Source of the DNA: Cytobacillus oceanisediminis
GTDB lineage: Bacteria; Bacillota; Bacilli; Bacillales; Cytobacillaceae
Length of the DNA stretch: 64,000 nt
Reading direction: 5' to 3'
NCBI RefSeq assembly: GCF_004366035.1
Contig: NZ_SOEE01000006.1
Span: forward strand, 186,001 to 250,000
Shown here: one piece after another, positions 20,269 to 58,566 of the stretch
Layout: each line of letters begins with the position of its first letter
Numbering within the stretch: the first letter of the stretch is position 1
Position numbers and translations under genes: made by a program
Notes under the pieces: model-generated
What the model was told of the DNA's origin: nothing
The model's input: the letters and a program-made list of their open reading frames with translations, nothing else
The model's database searches: none

Positions 20269-20303
20269 GAAAAAATTCCCCTTTTTAAAAGGGGGATTTT
20301 TTG
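20269..20303 (+). terminator. Intrinsic terminator after the 44-aa gene
   Basis: Stem of A/T pairs plus CCCC/GGGG (20271-20281 with 20291-20301), loop TTTTTAAAA, T tract on the right. Confidence 0.8.
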
Positions 20304-20330
20304 TTGCCGCCAGACACCAAGAAAAAAGGC

Positions 20331-20510
20331 TGTCTGAAAATAAAAAGGTCTATCCGAAAAAAAATGAGCTTTCTGCAAGTAAAATCCAGCTAGCCGAAAG
20401 TAAAAGCAGTGCATAATCTCTCAGGCGGCCAGATTTATTAAGTAAAAGTGCTTCCGCACATTAAAACTGGGATATCTGCACAGAAAAATTCTTATGTGCA
20501 CATAAATCGG
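20331..20510 (+). repeat. Degenerate 20-bp-period intergenic array (array 3)
   Basis: The gap between the small gene and the Rieske oxidoreductase holds at least seven diverged units in 20-bp register: four from 20331 to 20410 and three from about 20454 to 20513. Each has a pyrimidine-pyrimidine-G core followed by A's and TAAAA, for example CTGCAAGTAAAA (20373-20384), CCGAAAGTAAAA (20394-20405) and CCGCACATTAAAA (20454-20466). Bases between these two blocks are less clear. No open frame of note lies here. The core resembles those of the arrays at 33855-34274 and 58371-58566. Confidence 0.55.
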
Positions 20511-29493: not shown

Positions 29494-29720
29494 GATAACT
29501 GTCTAGCTTCTGCACCTGCCTTCTCAAGGTCACAAGCATGTCTTGTTGCGGCTCCTAGGGACTCGGGGTCATTAACCGTTTACTTTCAGAAGGAATTACG
29601 CCCTTCTTACAGGAACCGTCTTGTGCTTGAGGCCCCCAGGATGGGGGTCATGCAGACATAGCCAAAGGACGTGGCGCTTTTAGTCTGCGTTCCTTCGTGG
29701 GCAAGGCGCTTCCGCTTTTC
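29494..29720. repeat. Dispersed intergenic repeat, long copy (~227 bp)
   Basis: GC-richer than its surroundings, starts GATAACTGTCTAGCTTCTG and ends GGGCAAGGCGCTTCCGCTTTTC-like; both ends match the short copy at 3875-3965. The inside holds GGCCCCCAGG/ATGGGGGTC and other pairing segments, so a folded RNA or DNA structure is possible. It fills most of the 438-bp gap between the small membrane gene and rraA; the rest (29721-29880) shows no convincing gene, although a 90-codon frame crosses it out of phase with rraA. Confidence 0.7.
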
Positions 29721-31698: not shown

Positions 31699-31920
31699 AT
31701 CGCTGGCGCACCTCCGCCCTTAGTATGGGCAGGAGAGAATTGTTTCATGTGCCAAAAAAATGATTGATTACAGCTGCCATGAAGCCATGTCATCATGCCC
31801 CTGACTGCTGCATCCTTCTCTGTCCGTTAGAAAGTCCTTAGCACACTCTCCTGGAAGGTCGAATTCTTTAATTGATTAAGGAATATAGTGTAATAAAACT
31901 TTAGTGAGGGAATGAGGAAT

Positions 31921-33804
31921 GTGCAGCTAGTCAAGGCAGAAATTAACCGGCTAACTGATTTGCTGAAAAGCAGCCAATCACAGGATGGCTCATGGGCGTA
32001 TCCGTTTGAAATTGGAATCATGACTGATGCTTATATGATTATCCTGTTGAGGACGCTCAAAATGATGGATGAAGAGCTAATTCAGAAACTGGCGGAGAGA
32101 ATAGAAAGCCGCCAGGAAGAGAGTGGTGCCTGGAAGCTTTTTAGAGACGAAAAAGAAGGGAACTTATCTTTAACCATTGAATCCTATTACGCCCTTTTAT
32201 ACTCAGGCTATAGACAGAAGAATGACCCGCATCTGACAGCTGCACAGAAATTTATTTTATCAAAGGGCGGGATAAAAAAAGCAGGGATGTTTACAAAAAT
32301 CATGCTTGCCATGACAGGCCTATATCCATGGCCGGCCGTTTTTCCAGTCCCTATCGAAATTGTGCTGCTTCCTCCATCCAGCCCAATCAGCATCTACCAG
32401 CTTTCGAGCTTTGCCAGAATACATCTCCTGCCGGTGGTCCTGCTTGGCAGTAAGAAATTCAGGCGAAGAACGGAAAATAGTCCGGATTTGGGTGAAATCT
32501 ATGGAACAAGGGACAGGGAAGAACTATGGGAAGAAAGCCGTTCTGATGAATGGAGAAAACTTGTTGACGTTCTTACCGGTATGGCCGAAAGCTTAATTGG
32601 ATTACCTGAGCGGCTCCGCAGCATGGCATATGAGGGAACAAAGCAATATATGCTCGAGCGGATTGAACCGGACGGAACATCATTAAATTATTTCAGCAGC
32701 ACTTTTTATATGATTTTTGCCCTCCTCGCTCTCGGCTGCTCTCCCAAAAACCCAGTCATCATTAAGGCGGTGAAGGGATTAAAGGGAATGTCCTGCACAA
32801 TAGATGGACATATCCATTTTCAGTTAACAGACGCTAAAGTATGGAATACCGCTTTAATTTCCCACGCCCTCCAGGAGGCAGGTGCAGATGAATCAGATGC
32901 GGCGATTCTAAAGGCGAATAACTATTTGCTTTCAAGACAGCAAACCCGGCATGGAGACTGGACGGTCCACAACCGCAAGGGAGTTCCTGGAGGCTGGGGA
33001 TTTTCAGACTTTAATACCATGCATCCAGATGTGGATGATACGACCGCCAATCTGAGGAGCATTCACAATCAAACAGGAAAAGCTGCCAAGAAATCCAGGC
33101 AGAAAGGAATACAATGGGCTCTATCCATGCAAAACCGTGATGGGGGATGGCCGGCATTTGAAAAAAATGTCGATAATCCCCTGCTGAATCTAATTCCCAT
33201 TCAAGGAGCAGAGTTTATTCTCACTGATCCATCCACAGCAGATTTAACAGGCAGAACGATTGAATATTTAGGTACCTTTACTACAGGAGCTGAAACTTCA
33301 ATTAAAAGAGGAATAGGCTGGCTGAAAAAGAATCAGAGAATAGACGGTTCCTGGTATGGACGCTGGGGAATTTGCTTTCTGTATGGAACCTGGGCAGCCC
33401 TTACCGGCCTCGCCGCTGCAGGGGAAAAGGGAGATGAGGAGTACATTAGAAAAGCGGTTGAGTGGCTGAAATCTGTTCAAAATGAAGACGGCGGCTGGGG
33501 AGAATCCTGCAGAAGCGACATTGAAAAACGCTATGTTTCATTGGGAAGCAGTACATTAACACATACTGCCTGGGCCGTTGATGCTTTAATTGCCGTTTCT
33601 CATGAAAACAGCCCTGAGATCAGAAAAGGCATGGCTTTCCTGATTCGCGAAGGCCAAAGAAATGACTGGACGACAGATTACCCAAAAGGGCAGGGAATGG
33701 CCGGTTTCCTATACATGCATTATCACAGCTACCGGTATATTTGGCCGTTATTGGCACTAGGCCATTTTGAAAAGAAATTCATGCAAAAAGGAAGCTCCGA
33801 ATGA
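31921..33804 (+). CDS. sqhC: Squalene-hopene/sporulenol cyclase
   Basis: About 627 aa, the normal size of bacterial triterpene cyclases. The catalytic acid motif is D370-V-D-D373 in HPDVDDTT, and QW repeats (QxxxGxW) recur, for example QDGSWAYPF, QTRHGDWTV, QNRDGGWPAF, QRIDGSWYGRWG and QNEDGGWGES. In B. subtilis SqhC makes sporulenol/sporulene from a C35 terpene in spores; classic hopanoid formation is the alternative. The membrane-dipping hydrophobic segment around LYPWPAVFPVPIEIVLLP fits a monotopic protein. Start choice: GTG 31921 lies 10 nt after GTGAGGG, while ATG 31912 has no room for a ribosome site. Confidence 0.92.
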   Translation: MQLVKAEINRLTDLLKSSQSQDGSWAYPFEIGIMTDAYMIILLRTLKMMDEELIQKLAERIESRQEESGAWKLFRDEKEGNLSLTIESYYALLYSGYRQKNDPHLTAAQKFILSKGGIKKAGMFTKIMLAMTGLYPWPAVFPVPIEIVLLPPSSPISIYQLSSFARIHLLPVVLLGSKKFRRRTENSPDLGEIYGTRDREELWEESRSDEWRKLVDVLTGMAESLIGLPERLRSMAYEGTKQYMLERIEPDGTSLNYFSSTFYMIFALLALGCSPKNPVIIKAVKGLKGMSCTIDGHIHFQLTDAKVWNTALISHALQEAGADESDAAILKANNYLLSRQQTRHGDWTVHNRKGVPGGWGFSDFNTMHPDVDDTTANLRSIHNQTGKAAKKSRQKGIQWALSMQNRDGGWPAFEKNVDNPLLNLIPIQGAEFILTDPSTADLTGRTIEYLGTFTTGAETSIKRGIGWLKKNQRIDGSWYGRWGICFLYGTWAALTGLAAAGEKGDEEYIRKAVEWLKSVQNEDGGWGESCRSDIEKRYVSLGSSTLTHTAWAVDALIAVSHENSPEIRKGMAFLIREGQRNDWTTDYPKGQGMAGFLYMHYHSYRYIWPLLALGHFEKKFMQKGSSE

Positions 33805-33822
33805 TCGGGACTTCCTTTTTTA
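33790..33822 (+). terminator. Intrinsic terminator overlapping the end of the cyclase gene
   Basis: GGAAG..CCGA pairs with TCGG..CTTCC (two mismatches inside) around AATGA, followed by six T's; the left arm is within the last codons. Confidence 0.6.
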
Positions 33823-33854
33823 TTGGCTTATTAATTTGGGTTTTTGCGGTGTTT

Positions 33855-34274
33855 GAGAATTCGCTCATAACATTGGAAATTCGCCGATAAAACCGAGAAT
33901 TCGCTCATAACATTGGAAATTCGCCGATAAAACCGAGAATTCGCTCATAATATTGGAAATTCGCCGATAAAACCGAGAATTTGCTCATAACTTTGGAAAT
34001 TCGCCGATAAAACCGAAATTTCGCTCATAGCTTTGGAAATTCGCCGATAAAACCGAGATTTCGCTCATAACTTTGGAAATTCGCCGATAAAACCGAGGTT
34101 TCGCTTATAACTTTGAAATTTTGCCGATAAAACCGAAATTTCGCTCATAACTTTGAAATTTTGCCGATAAAACCGAAATTTCGCTCATAACTTTGAAATA
34201 TCGCCGATAAAACTGAGAATTCGCTCATAACTTTGAAATTCCGCCTAAAAAACAGAAATTCTGGCTCATGAACC
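33855..34274 (+). repeat. Tandem array, 40-bp unit made of two 20-bp halves (array 1)
   Basis: Ten full 40-bp units (33855-34254) and a 20-bp partial unit, in perfect register with no indels. Each unit is two related 20-mers: one with the core TTCGCTCATAAC, the other with TTCGCCGATAAAACC. Left-hand units are almost identical; they drift toward the right end, where the last unit is degenerate. 40 is not a multiple of 3, all frames contain stops, and there is no spacer-like unique sequence, so it is neither coding nor CRISPR. It fills the gap between the cyclase gene and the convergent M50-like gene. Confidence 0.95.
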
Positions 34275-34280
34275 TGCTCA

Positions 34281-34793
34281 CTATTTTTTCTCCTCATCAA
34301 TCAGCTGGCAGTCTGCTGAGGAATCATCTTTATTTTTATTAAACCAGAGCTTGTACATAGCCTTCCCGTCACTAAGTGTGCCATCTGCCATATCCATTGG
34401 CAGCAGGGCGAAAAAGACGTAATAAAAGGAGAAATATACAAATTGGTACCACAGCATGCTAGCATCCAGAATGCCCAGCTGGATTAGGTAATTCACAATA
34501 AAAATGCTGCCTATGTTAAAAATAGACCCTCCTAAAAAGATAAGAGATTTGGTCAGTTTATTGCTGTATTTTAATGCTGAAAACTCACATCCTCCATACC
34601 AGAAGTAAAACCGTCTAACCTCTAAAAACCTCATTGAGAATAGGATTTTGCCTGTGCCAATAATAACACGGATCCCTCTTCCGCCAAAAATGCCTGCAAA
34701 GAATATATGACCTAATAAATGAATCAGTGTGACTACCGGGTAAACCACAAAAAAGGCTTGAATGAATTTCAAAAAATCATCATACCCAAACAT
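34281..34793 (-). CDS. Membrane protein resembling an inactive M50 (site-2-type) protease
   Basis: A 170-aa membrane protein with four or so helices. Helix 1 contains VVTLIHLLGHIFFAGIFGG: the pattern and surroundings match the HELGH zinc motif of M50 intramembrane proteases, but here residues 25-29 are H-L-L-G-H, with Leu in place of the catalytic Glu. Near residue 131 LPMDMADGTLSDG recalls the second S2P motif (LPxxxxDG), with Asp kept. The likely reading is a catalytically dead relative, or a new membrane family. AAGGAGG 7 nt before ATG 34793 decides the start over a longer in-frame option. Right against the repeat array. Confidence 0.65.
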   Translation of the reverse strand: MFGYDDFLKFIQAFFVVYPVVTLIHLLGHIFFAGIFGGRGIRVIIGTGKILFSMRFLEVRRFYFWYGGCEFSALKYSNKLTKSLIFLGGSIFNIGSIFIVNYLIQLGILDASMLWYQFVYFSFYYVFFALLPMDMADGTLSDGKAMYKLWFNKNKDDSSADCQLIDEEKK

Positions 34794-34952
34794 TGGAGGA
34801 CCTCCTTTTCCATAGATGTATGAAAAATCTGCGCTATGCAGCTTCATTATTTGTTTGCCTACCCCATGTGTACCCTGCATTTTTCCCCATTAACGTACAT
34901 TCTTTTTCCATATTTCCCATCTGGATTGTAAGGGGCCGACCATCTGCTACGT

Positions 34953-58328: not shown

Positions 58329-58358
58329 AAAGTGCCATGAATGTGGCGCTTTTTTTTG
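58329..58358 (+). terminator. Intrinsic terminator after cls
   Basis: 9-bp stem AAAGTGCCA (58329-58337) / TGGCGCTTT (58344-58352), one G-T pair, then a run of T's. Confidence 0.88.
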
Positions 58359-58370
58359 TGAAAAACAGCT

Positions 58371-58566
58371 TTGCAAATAAAGCGGCTGAACTTGCAAATA
58401 AAGAAGTGAAATTGCAAATAAATCAGTTGAACTTGCAAATCAATAAGTGGACTGCAAATAGAGCACCAGAATGAGCAAATAGAGCATCAGAACTTGCAAA
58501 TCAATAGGTAAACCTGCAAATAGACAAAGCCCCTGTGCAAATAGAAATCCAAACTTGCAAATAACC
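58371..58566 (+). repeat. Diverged ~20.4-bp-period intergenic array (array 2)
   Basis: Ten units start at 58371, 58392, 58412, 58433, 58452, 58473, 58494, 58514, 58535 and 58555 (spacings 19-21 bp). Every unit has the core TGCAAATA (one has GAGCAAATA; two have TGCAAATCAATA), usually followed by AAG or GAG and a variable ~9-bp tail. No coding potential. It begins 13 bp after the cls terminator and occupies most of the gap to tldD. Confidence 0.9.

What the first reader, a model, noticed from the sequence alone, without database searches (positions are those of the whole stretch)
33855..34274. Ten-copy 40-bp tandem array, itself a 20-bp dimer, and member of a wider repeat class
Seen in sequence: ten 40-bp units without indels, each two related 20-mers with the cores TTCGCTCATAAC and TTCGCCGATAAAACC. 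Two other gaps in this window hold arrays of different sequence but of the same ~20-bp period and a comparable core: TTGCAAATAAAG (58371-58566) and CTGCAAGTAAAA (20331-20510). Written together the cores fit Y-Y-G-C-(A/C)-R-R-T-A-A-A. All three are read in the same strand direction, lie just after the 3' end of a plus-strand gene, and have units near two DNA helical turns. Inference: a class of short-period intergenic arrays in which period and core are kept while the unit sequence turns over locally; a role in phased protein binding, 3'-end structure or replication slippage products are all possible.
Basis: partly seen in the sequence, partly recalled or inferred. Interest (0 to 1): 0.7.

Follow-up and report, generated by a model that had tools for sequence, protein, structure and literature searches.

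The report
Repeat arrays matched to nuclease genes
The repeat array is one of many chromosomal strings of evenly spaced DNA sites, and each string appears to be the binding platform of its own member of a family of DNA-cutting-type proteins whose genes sit next to arrays with the same site; this pairing seems not to have been described before.

Summary
The array is real: 21 units of 20 bp (33855-34272), ten 40-bp dimers. It belongs to a large class. In 0.84 Mb of this Cytobacillus genome, core-to-core distances pile up only at 20/21, 40-42, 60-63 and 80-84 bp. Similar arrays occur across Bacillales (75 of 117 genera sampled) but in none of the Bacillota sampled outside the order.

The core (here TTCGCTCATAA / TTCGCCGATAAA) is constant within an array, differs between arrays, and is under purifying selection while linkers drift.

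The key result lies outside the window. A family of ~320-aa chromosomal proteins (PD-(D/E)XK-type NERD domain, zinc ribbon, predicted winged helix) has a 20/21-bp array beside the gene in 83 of 85 cases (controls 21 of 226). Each paralog has its own core. Recognition-helix residues covary with the core (0/1000 permutations). All 18 dispersed arrays tested here carry the core of one of this genome's own NERD genes; the window array pairs with a frameshifted NERD gene at contig 8, ~129 kb.

Best reading: arrays are helically spaced binding platforms for cognate NERD nucleases, several orthogonal pairs per genome. Pairing is well supported by computation; binding and cutting are inferred; the purpose (defence, DNA processing or selfish spread) is open.

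The parts
33855..34272 (+). Tandem array: 21 units of 20 bp (ten 40-bp dimers), cores TTCGCTCATAAC and TTCGCCGATAAAACC; dialect of the NERD gene at G000:C8:~129 kb
33792..33826 (+). Intrinsic terminator of the upstream gene, just before the array
   Evidence: read directly
31912..33804 (+). Upstream ORF, probably squalene-hopene cyclase (name from own knowledge); orthologs used to compare the array between species
34281..34880 (-). Convergent downstream ORF whose stop lies 8 bp after the array
58371..58566 (+). Second array, core TTGCAAATAAA/TGCAAATAGA, about 20.5-bp period, 10 units; closest to the arrays of the NERD genes at C5:92 kb and C2:225 kb
58331..58357 (+). Intrinsic terminator just before the second array
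   Evidence: read directly
20326..20508 (+). Degraded third array, relative of the CTATCCGCACATAAA dialect (NERD gene at C3:193 kb)
20277..20303 (+). Intrinsic terminator just before the degraded array
   Evidence: read directly

Best explanation
The array is a row of head-to-tail binding sites, two DNA turns apart, for one member of a family of chromosomal nuclease-like proteins (NERD domain, zinc ribbon, C-terminal winged helix). Each genome holds several such proteins, each with its own core. Its sites lie beside its own gene, mostly upstream, and in dispersed arrays elsewhere on the chromosome. The array in this window carries the core of the NERD gene at contig 8, ~129 kb, which is frameshifted in this assembly but intact in a sister species. 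Shown by computation: array anatomy, selection on cores, gene-array linkage, covariation of protein and core, and the match between dispersed arrays and local genes. Inferred: cooperative coating of the array by the protein, repression of the protein's own gene by the upstream array, and a nuclease held at or directed from the arrays. My best guess for the purpose is a host-retained DNA-processing or defence function (about 0.4), because catalytic residues and protein sequence are conserved and no mobile carrier was found.
For: 83 of 85 NERD-family genes in about 25 genera have a 20/21-bp array within 500 bp, found without assuming a core (68/70, 15/15); control genes 21/226. Each locus has its own core. 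Motif similarity is 0.87 for proteins above 70% identity and about 0.38 below 50% (Mantel exceeds 500 permutations). Six recognition-helix residues covary with the motif after controlling for overall identity (partial 0.149, 0/1000 permutations); none of the eight other regions tested does. All 18 dispersed arrays in this genome match an own NERD dialect better than random foreign sets; set level 0.84 against a foreign maximum of 0.66, 0/5000. Core changes 6.1%, NN 8.7%, linker 19.0% between species. NN is fixed within arrays (0.85) even where linkers are random, but free between arrays (0.285). Catalytic D 51/51, E 50/51, K 51/51. dN/dS 0.07-0.26. Predicted fold is a restriction-like nuclease plus winged helix. 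Genomes without full-length NERD genes (G015, G016, G048, G058, G332) have 0-1 array hits.
Against: No binding or cutting has been shown. The recognition-helix test was set up after I had looked at the helix/core list. Some single columns outside the helix (72, 248) associate as strongly. The structure model is moderate (pLDDT 75, four sequences) and no PDB match reaches E 0.001. The cognate NERD gene of the window array is frameshifted here, yet the array has 21 good units. Two of 70 NERD loci lacked a clear array.
Confidence: 0.83

Rival explanations
1. Selfish element: an array-NERD-array unit that spreads by nuclease-triggered recombination. The dispersed arrays are 'solo arrays' left when the gene is lost between its flanking repeats.
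For: 22 of 70 loci have arrays downstream, most of these on both sides of the gene (examples L145, L170, L172). 3-13 copies in the own-genus array-rich genomes, and several broken copies. Dispersed arrays sit after terminators and are mostly co-oriented with replication in Cytobacillus, as some mobile elements are (own knowledge). Restriction-like nuclease fold.
Against: Cores in dispersed arrays are under purifying selection. NERD dN/dS is 0.07-0.26 and orthologs stay in place across species. No match in 72,556 plasmids or 50,697 phage records. No integrase or transposase was seen as a recurrent neighbour.
Confidence: 0.25
2. Neutral minisatellites made by replication slippage, with no function.
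For: Copy number varies from 2 to 21 units between species at the same site; the 40-bp dimer is amplified.
Against: Linkers are randomised while cores and spacing are kept. Cores evolve three times more slowly than linkers. The link to NERD genes is unexplained.
Confidence: 0.04
3. A 3'-end RNA element acting on mRNA structure, termination or stability.
For: Arrays lie close to gene 3' ends (median 70 bp after co-oriented upstream genes).
Against: They start about 35 nt beyond the terminator. No excess RNA structure on either strand (mean z -0.26 and -0.51). Contexts with both flanking genes reversed, or divergent, exist. No Rfam match.
Confidence: 0.03
4. Arrays are bound by another chromosome-organising protein, and NERD genes merely sit near arrays.
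For: Phased spacing and replication-biased orientation suit a nucleoid protein; RemA wraps repetitive AT-rich DNA (PMC8481266).
Against: Would not explain a different core per NERD paralog or the covariation with the NERD recognition helix. RemA sites repeat every 10 bp, not 20-21 (PMC8481266).
Confidence: 0.08

Closest known systems
NERD domain proteins (Pfam PF08378, nuclease-related domain)
   Same: The array-linked proteins are members by Pfam score (E 1e-20 to 1e-24); PD-(D/E)XK motif conserved
   Different: The Pfam match covers only the N-terminal domain; I found no report of a zinc ribbon plus winged helix matched to DNA arrays
Plasmid iterons and partition-site repeats (Rep/iteron, ParR/parC; own knowledge)
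   Same: Direct repeats about two helical turns apart, bound head-to-tail by a cognate protein
   Different: Chromosomal, many dispersed copies, nuclease domain, no replication or partition gene seen, absent from the plasmid collection
CRISPR arrays
   Same: Array next to a nuclease gene; a CRISPR-association screen lists a NERD protein as a putative CRISPR auxiliary gene (PMC10910872), which may be a glimpse of this
   Different: Spacing fixed at 20-21 bp with only 7-9 bp of drifting linker, no cas genes seen nearby, linkers conserved between orthologs rather than acquired
REP/RAYT elements
   Same: Dispersed intergenic repeats with a cognate chromosomal nuclease-type protein
   Different: No palindromic hairpin units, no HUH (Y1) transposase domain; the protein is PD-(D/E)XK-like
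RemA of Bacillus subtilis
   Same: Binds repetitive, poorly conserved AT-rich DNA and may wrap it (PMC8481266)
   Different: 7-bp sites with 3-bp gaps; LytTR-like fold; single conserved protein, no array-specific dialects

Membership tests
NERD (PF08378) proteins | Pfam NERD domain above gathering score | tested here: met
   72.6-84.5 bits against cut-off 22.1 in four proteins
NERD (PF08378) proteins | Conserved PD-(D/E)XK catalytic residues | tested here: met
   D79 51/51, E92 50/51, K94 51/51 in non-redundant members
Winged-helix DNA-binding proteins | Three helices plus a beta wing at the C terminus | tested here: inconclusive
   Predicted H271-282, H289-296, H301-310 and a short wing; only weak Foldseek support (DsrD)
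CRISPR-Cas | Repeats separated by unique 20-70 bp spacers, with cas genes | tested here: not met
   Linkers of 7-9 bp, constant period; no cas-like recurrent neighbours
Plasmid iterons | Replication-initiator gene and origin on a plasmid | tested here: not met
   Chromosomal; window array and NERD protein absent from 72,556 plasmids
REP/RAYT | Palindromic units and HUH transposase | tested here: not met
   No structure excess; Pfam shows only NERD
Restriction-modification systems | Partner methyltransferase protecting the site | not tested
   None recurred among flanking-gene clusters, but no genome-wide search was made
Known anti-phage defence systems | Match to PADLOC models | tested here: not met
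   One sub-significant hit only

The most novel reading that the evidence does not exclude
A previously undescribed, protein-addressed genome system: each Bacillales chromosome carries several orthogonal nuclease-array pairs in which the winged-helix 'address' of the nuclease and its repeat arrays have co-diversified. The arrays would be genome-wide docking platforms serving defence, fork or recombination control, or selfish spread.
Probability: 0.6. Interest if true: 0.9.

Novelty: categorically new. Interest (0 to 1): 0.85.

Why it matters
It would explain a widespread kind of intergenic repeat in Bacillaceae and Planococcaceae and give the NERD domain a DNA target. It also supplies a natural collection of dozens of protein-DNA pairs from which a winged-helix recognition code could be read. 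Either of the main functional readings, a new defence or DNA-processing system or a new selfish element, would be new biology and can be tested in harmless soil bacteria.

Tried and rejected
Literal-sequence searches of papers and topic searches found nothing on these arrays. Rfam: no match to the arrays. DnaA boxes, group IIC introns, TnpB target motifs and Chi-like sites were considered from memory and dropped for lack of fit. RemA was considered; its sites have a 10-bp period. A strict rule 'arrays always follow the replication fork' was tested. It holds for 56 of 63 arrays in four Cytobacillus genomes, and 25 of 27 where flanking genes are convergent or divergent. Fewer of the listed arrays follow it in Neobacillus mesonae (about 6 of 9), so it is a bias, not a rule; orthologous loci make these counts non-independent. 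The 3.3-kb 'modules' in Oceanobacillus senegalensis are scaffold gaps (runs of N). Viral contigs gave 32 single hits in 2.9 million contigs, read as chance. Bacteroidota and other stray hits were not followed.

Full report
Observation. The array at 33855-34272 exists as described: 40-bp period, 10.2 copies, 91% match, that is 21 units of 20 bp with no indel except a final 21. It starts after the terminator of the upstream plus-strand gene and ends 8 bp before the stop of a convergent gene. The 58371-58566 array is also real. The 20331-20510 array is a strongly decayed relative (score 59.9, shuffled maximum 25.5).

The class. Two pattern searches found more arrays in this genome and none with reversed patterns. 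In an unselected sample of 0.84 Mb, same-strand core distances peak at 20/21, 40-42, 60-63 and 80-84 bp and almost nowhere else; permuted cores give 0-4 pairs. A generic pattern (GCNNATAAA repeated at 20/21 bp) hits 34 of 36 genomes of the genus and 167 of 299 genomes of the order, in 75 of 117 genera. A three-unit version hits none of the phylum sample except this genome. Named hits include Oceanobacillus, Neobacillus, Metabacillus, Mesobacillus, Sporosarcina, Planococcus, Lysinibacillus, Gracilibacillus, Cytobacillus and others. Cytobacillus gottheilii has the same hit positions as G017, which the tool places in the window's genus, so the window comes from a Cytobacillus species.

Anatomy and selection. 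In 119 multi-genus arrays, 825 of 873 unit spacings are 20 or 21 (the finder favours these spacings, but one search does not assume them). Within arrays the core positions are about 90% identical and linkers 35-40%. The two 'NN' bases in GCNNATAAA are nearly free between arrays (identity 0.285) but fixed within them (0.85), even in the 54 arrays whose linkers are random. In 66 species-pair comparisons of orthologous arrays, core bases differ at 6.1%, NN at 8.7%, linkers at 19.0% (core against linker p = 1.5e-43; NN against linker p = 1e-11). NN was unspecified in the search patterns, so that comparison is not biased by how arrays were chosen. At the window's own site the unit number is 21 here, 10 in two relatives, about 5-7 in two others and 2 in two more. 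Each array thus has its own dialect kept by selection, which pointed to dialect-specific partners.

The partner. Clustering of genes beside arrays showed recurrent NERD-domain genes (Pfam PF08378). In several loci, in three genera, the gene lies directly between arrays (Lysinibacillus L145 with 61 and 6 units; L170; L172). The proteins are about 320 aa, with a conserved Q-x-D...E-x-K nuclease core, a zinc ribbon and a C-terminal helical domain. An AlphaFold model (pLDDT 75) shows a restriction-like fold followed by a zinc ribbon and a winged helix. Foldseek's best, weak matches are restriction-like nucleases (R2 endonuclease region, Bax1, McrC, Card1/Can2) and, for the C terminus, the winged helix DsrD.

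Linkage. I searched 56 genomes for this family. In 500 bp either side of each gene I looked for 20/21-bp arrays with no assumed core. 68 of the first 70 loci and 15 of 15 further loci have one above the 99% control level; 58 of 70 have it upstream. Non-NERD genes give 20/199 and 1/27. The cores differ from gene to gene, many lacking GCNNATAAA (for example GTTTGGACTGTAA, TTTCGTAGTGATT, GAGTTCGGTAAAA), so the true class is larger than the first search pattern. Genomes without full-length members have 0-1 pattern hits.

Specificity. Proteins above 70% identity share the motif (0.87), those below 50% mostly do not (about 0.38). In 51 non-redundant proteins the recognition helix keeps S-xxx-A-x-x-L-L with variable x positions. 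Those positions covary with the motif after controlling for overall identity (0/1000 permutations), while eight other regions do not. The helix was chosen from the predicted fold, but after I had looked at the list, and two single columns elsewhere also associate, so this needs confirming on new loci. In this genome, all 18 dispersed arrays tested match one of seven own NERD dialects; random sets of seven foreign dialects never match as well (0/5000). The window array pairs with the NERD gene at G000:C8:~129 kb (0.86). That gene is split by a frameshift in this assembly but intact in G005 (L306). The 58371 array is closest to the C5:92 kb dialect, with C2:225 kb second.

Mechanism. Shown by computation: spacing, dialects, selection, linkage, covariation. 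Inferred: the winged helix binds one core per unit, proteins line up head-to-tail along the array, the upstream array regulates its own gene, and the nuclease acts at or from arrays. Retained catalytic residues and dN/dS of 0.07-0.26 argue for an active, host-useful protein. Absence from phage and plasmid collections argues against a freely mobile element. Arrays begin about 35 nt past terminators and show no excess RNA structure, which argues against an RNA role. In four Cytobacillus genomes 56 of 63 arrays point with the replication fork, including 25 of 27 where flanking genes are convergent or divergent (my count). Orthologous loci are not independent, and Neobacillus mesonae shows only a weak bias.

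What remains open. The biological purpose is not settled: defence or DNA processing, selfish spread with solo arrays, or chromosome/fork control. No paper in the held library describes the pairing; one CRISPR-discovery study lists a NERD protein as a putative CRISPR auxiliary gene (PMC10910872). Most subscription papers are not held, so novelty is judged on partial literature.

Noticed in passing
window 29633-29699 (-): Match to Rfam RF01690, Bacillaceae-1 RNA (64.4 bits).
   Followed up: no
L097 (G033), downstream of the SqhC ortholog: Different array of about 52-bp units (CTGAAATCTGTGG...TTTTCGGGAATGACTCGCCTTGGGTCATTC), probably hairpin-forming; not of the 20/21-bp class.
   Followed up: no
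L095 (G013), after the SqhC ortholog: Several copies of AAGCGGAGAATTTCCG(A/G)TTAA-like palindromic repeats where relatives carry the 20-bp array.
   Followed up: no
L410 and L372 (G044): Two NERD proteins 70% identical with different array cores (similarity 0.44): a possible recent change of specificity, a good pair for a helix-swap test.
   Followed up: no
L038 8943-9916, L058 10572-11522, L415, L334: NERD copies with frameshifts or stops next to otherwise good arrays: broken genes whose arrays persist, or assembly errors.
   Followed up: partly
L043 11969-14200; L130; L347: NERD gene with an array upstream and oppositely oriented arrays 0.6-0.9 kb downstream, the same in three Cytobacillus species.
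   Followed up: partly
AC-dialect arrays, e.g. L033 14766-14857, L054 18750-18842: Units extend to a 16-bp dyad TTTATCCGCACATAAA (two overlapping half-sites), unlike other dialects.
   Followed up: no
L150 / L139 (Oceanobacillus senegalensis): Apparent 3.3-kb repeated modules are arrays split by runs of N; hit counts there (363) are inflated.
   Followed up: yes
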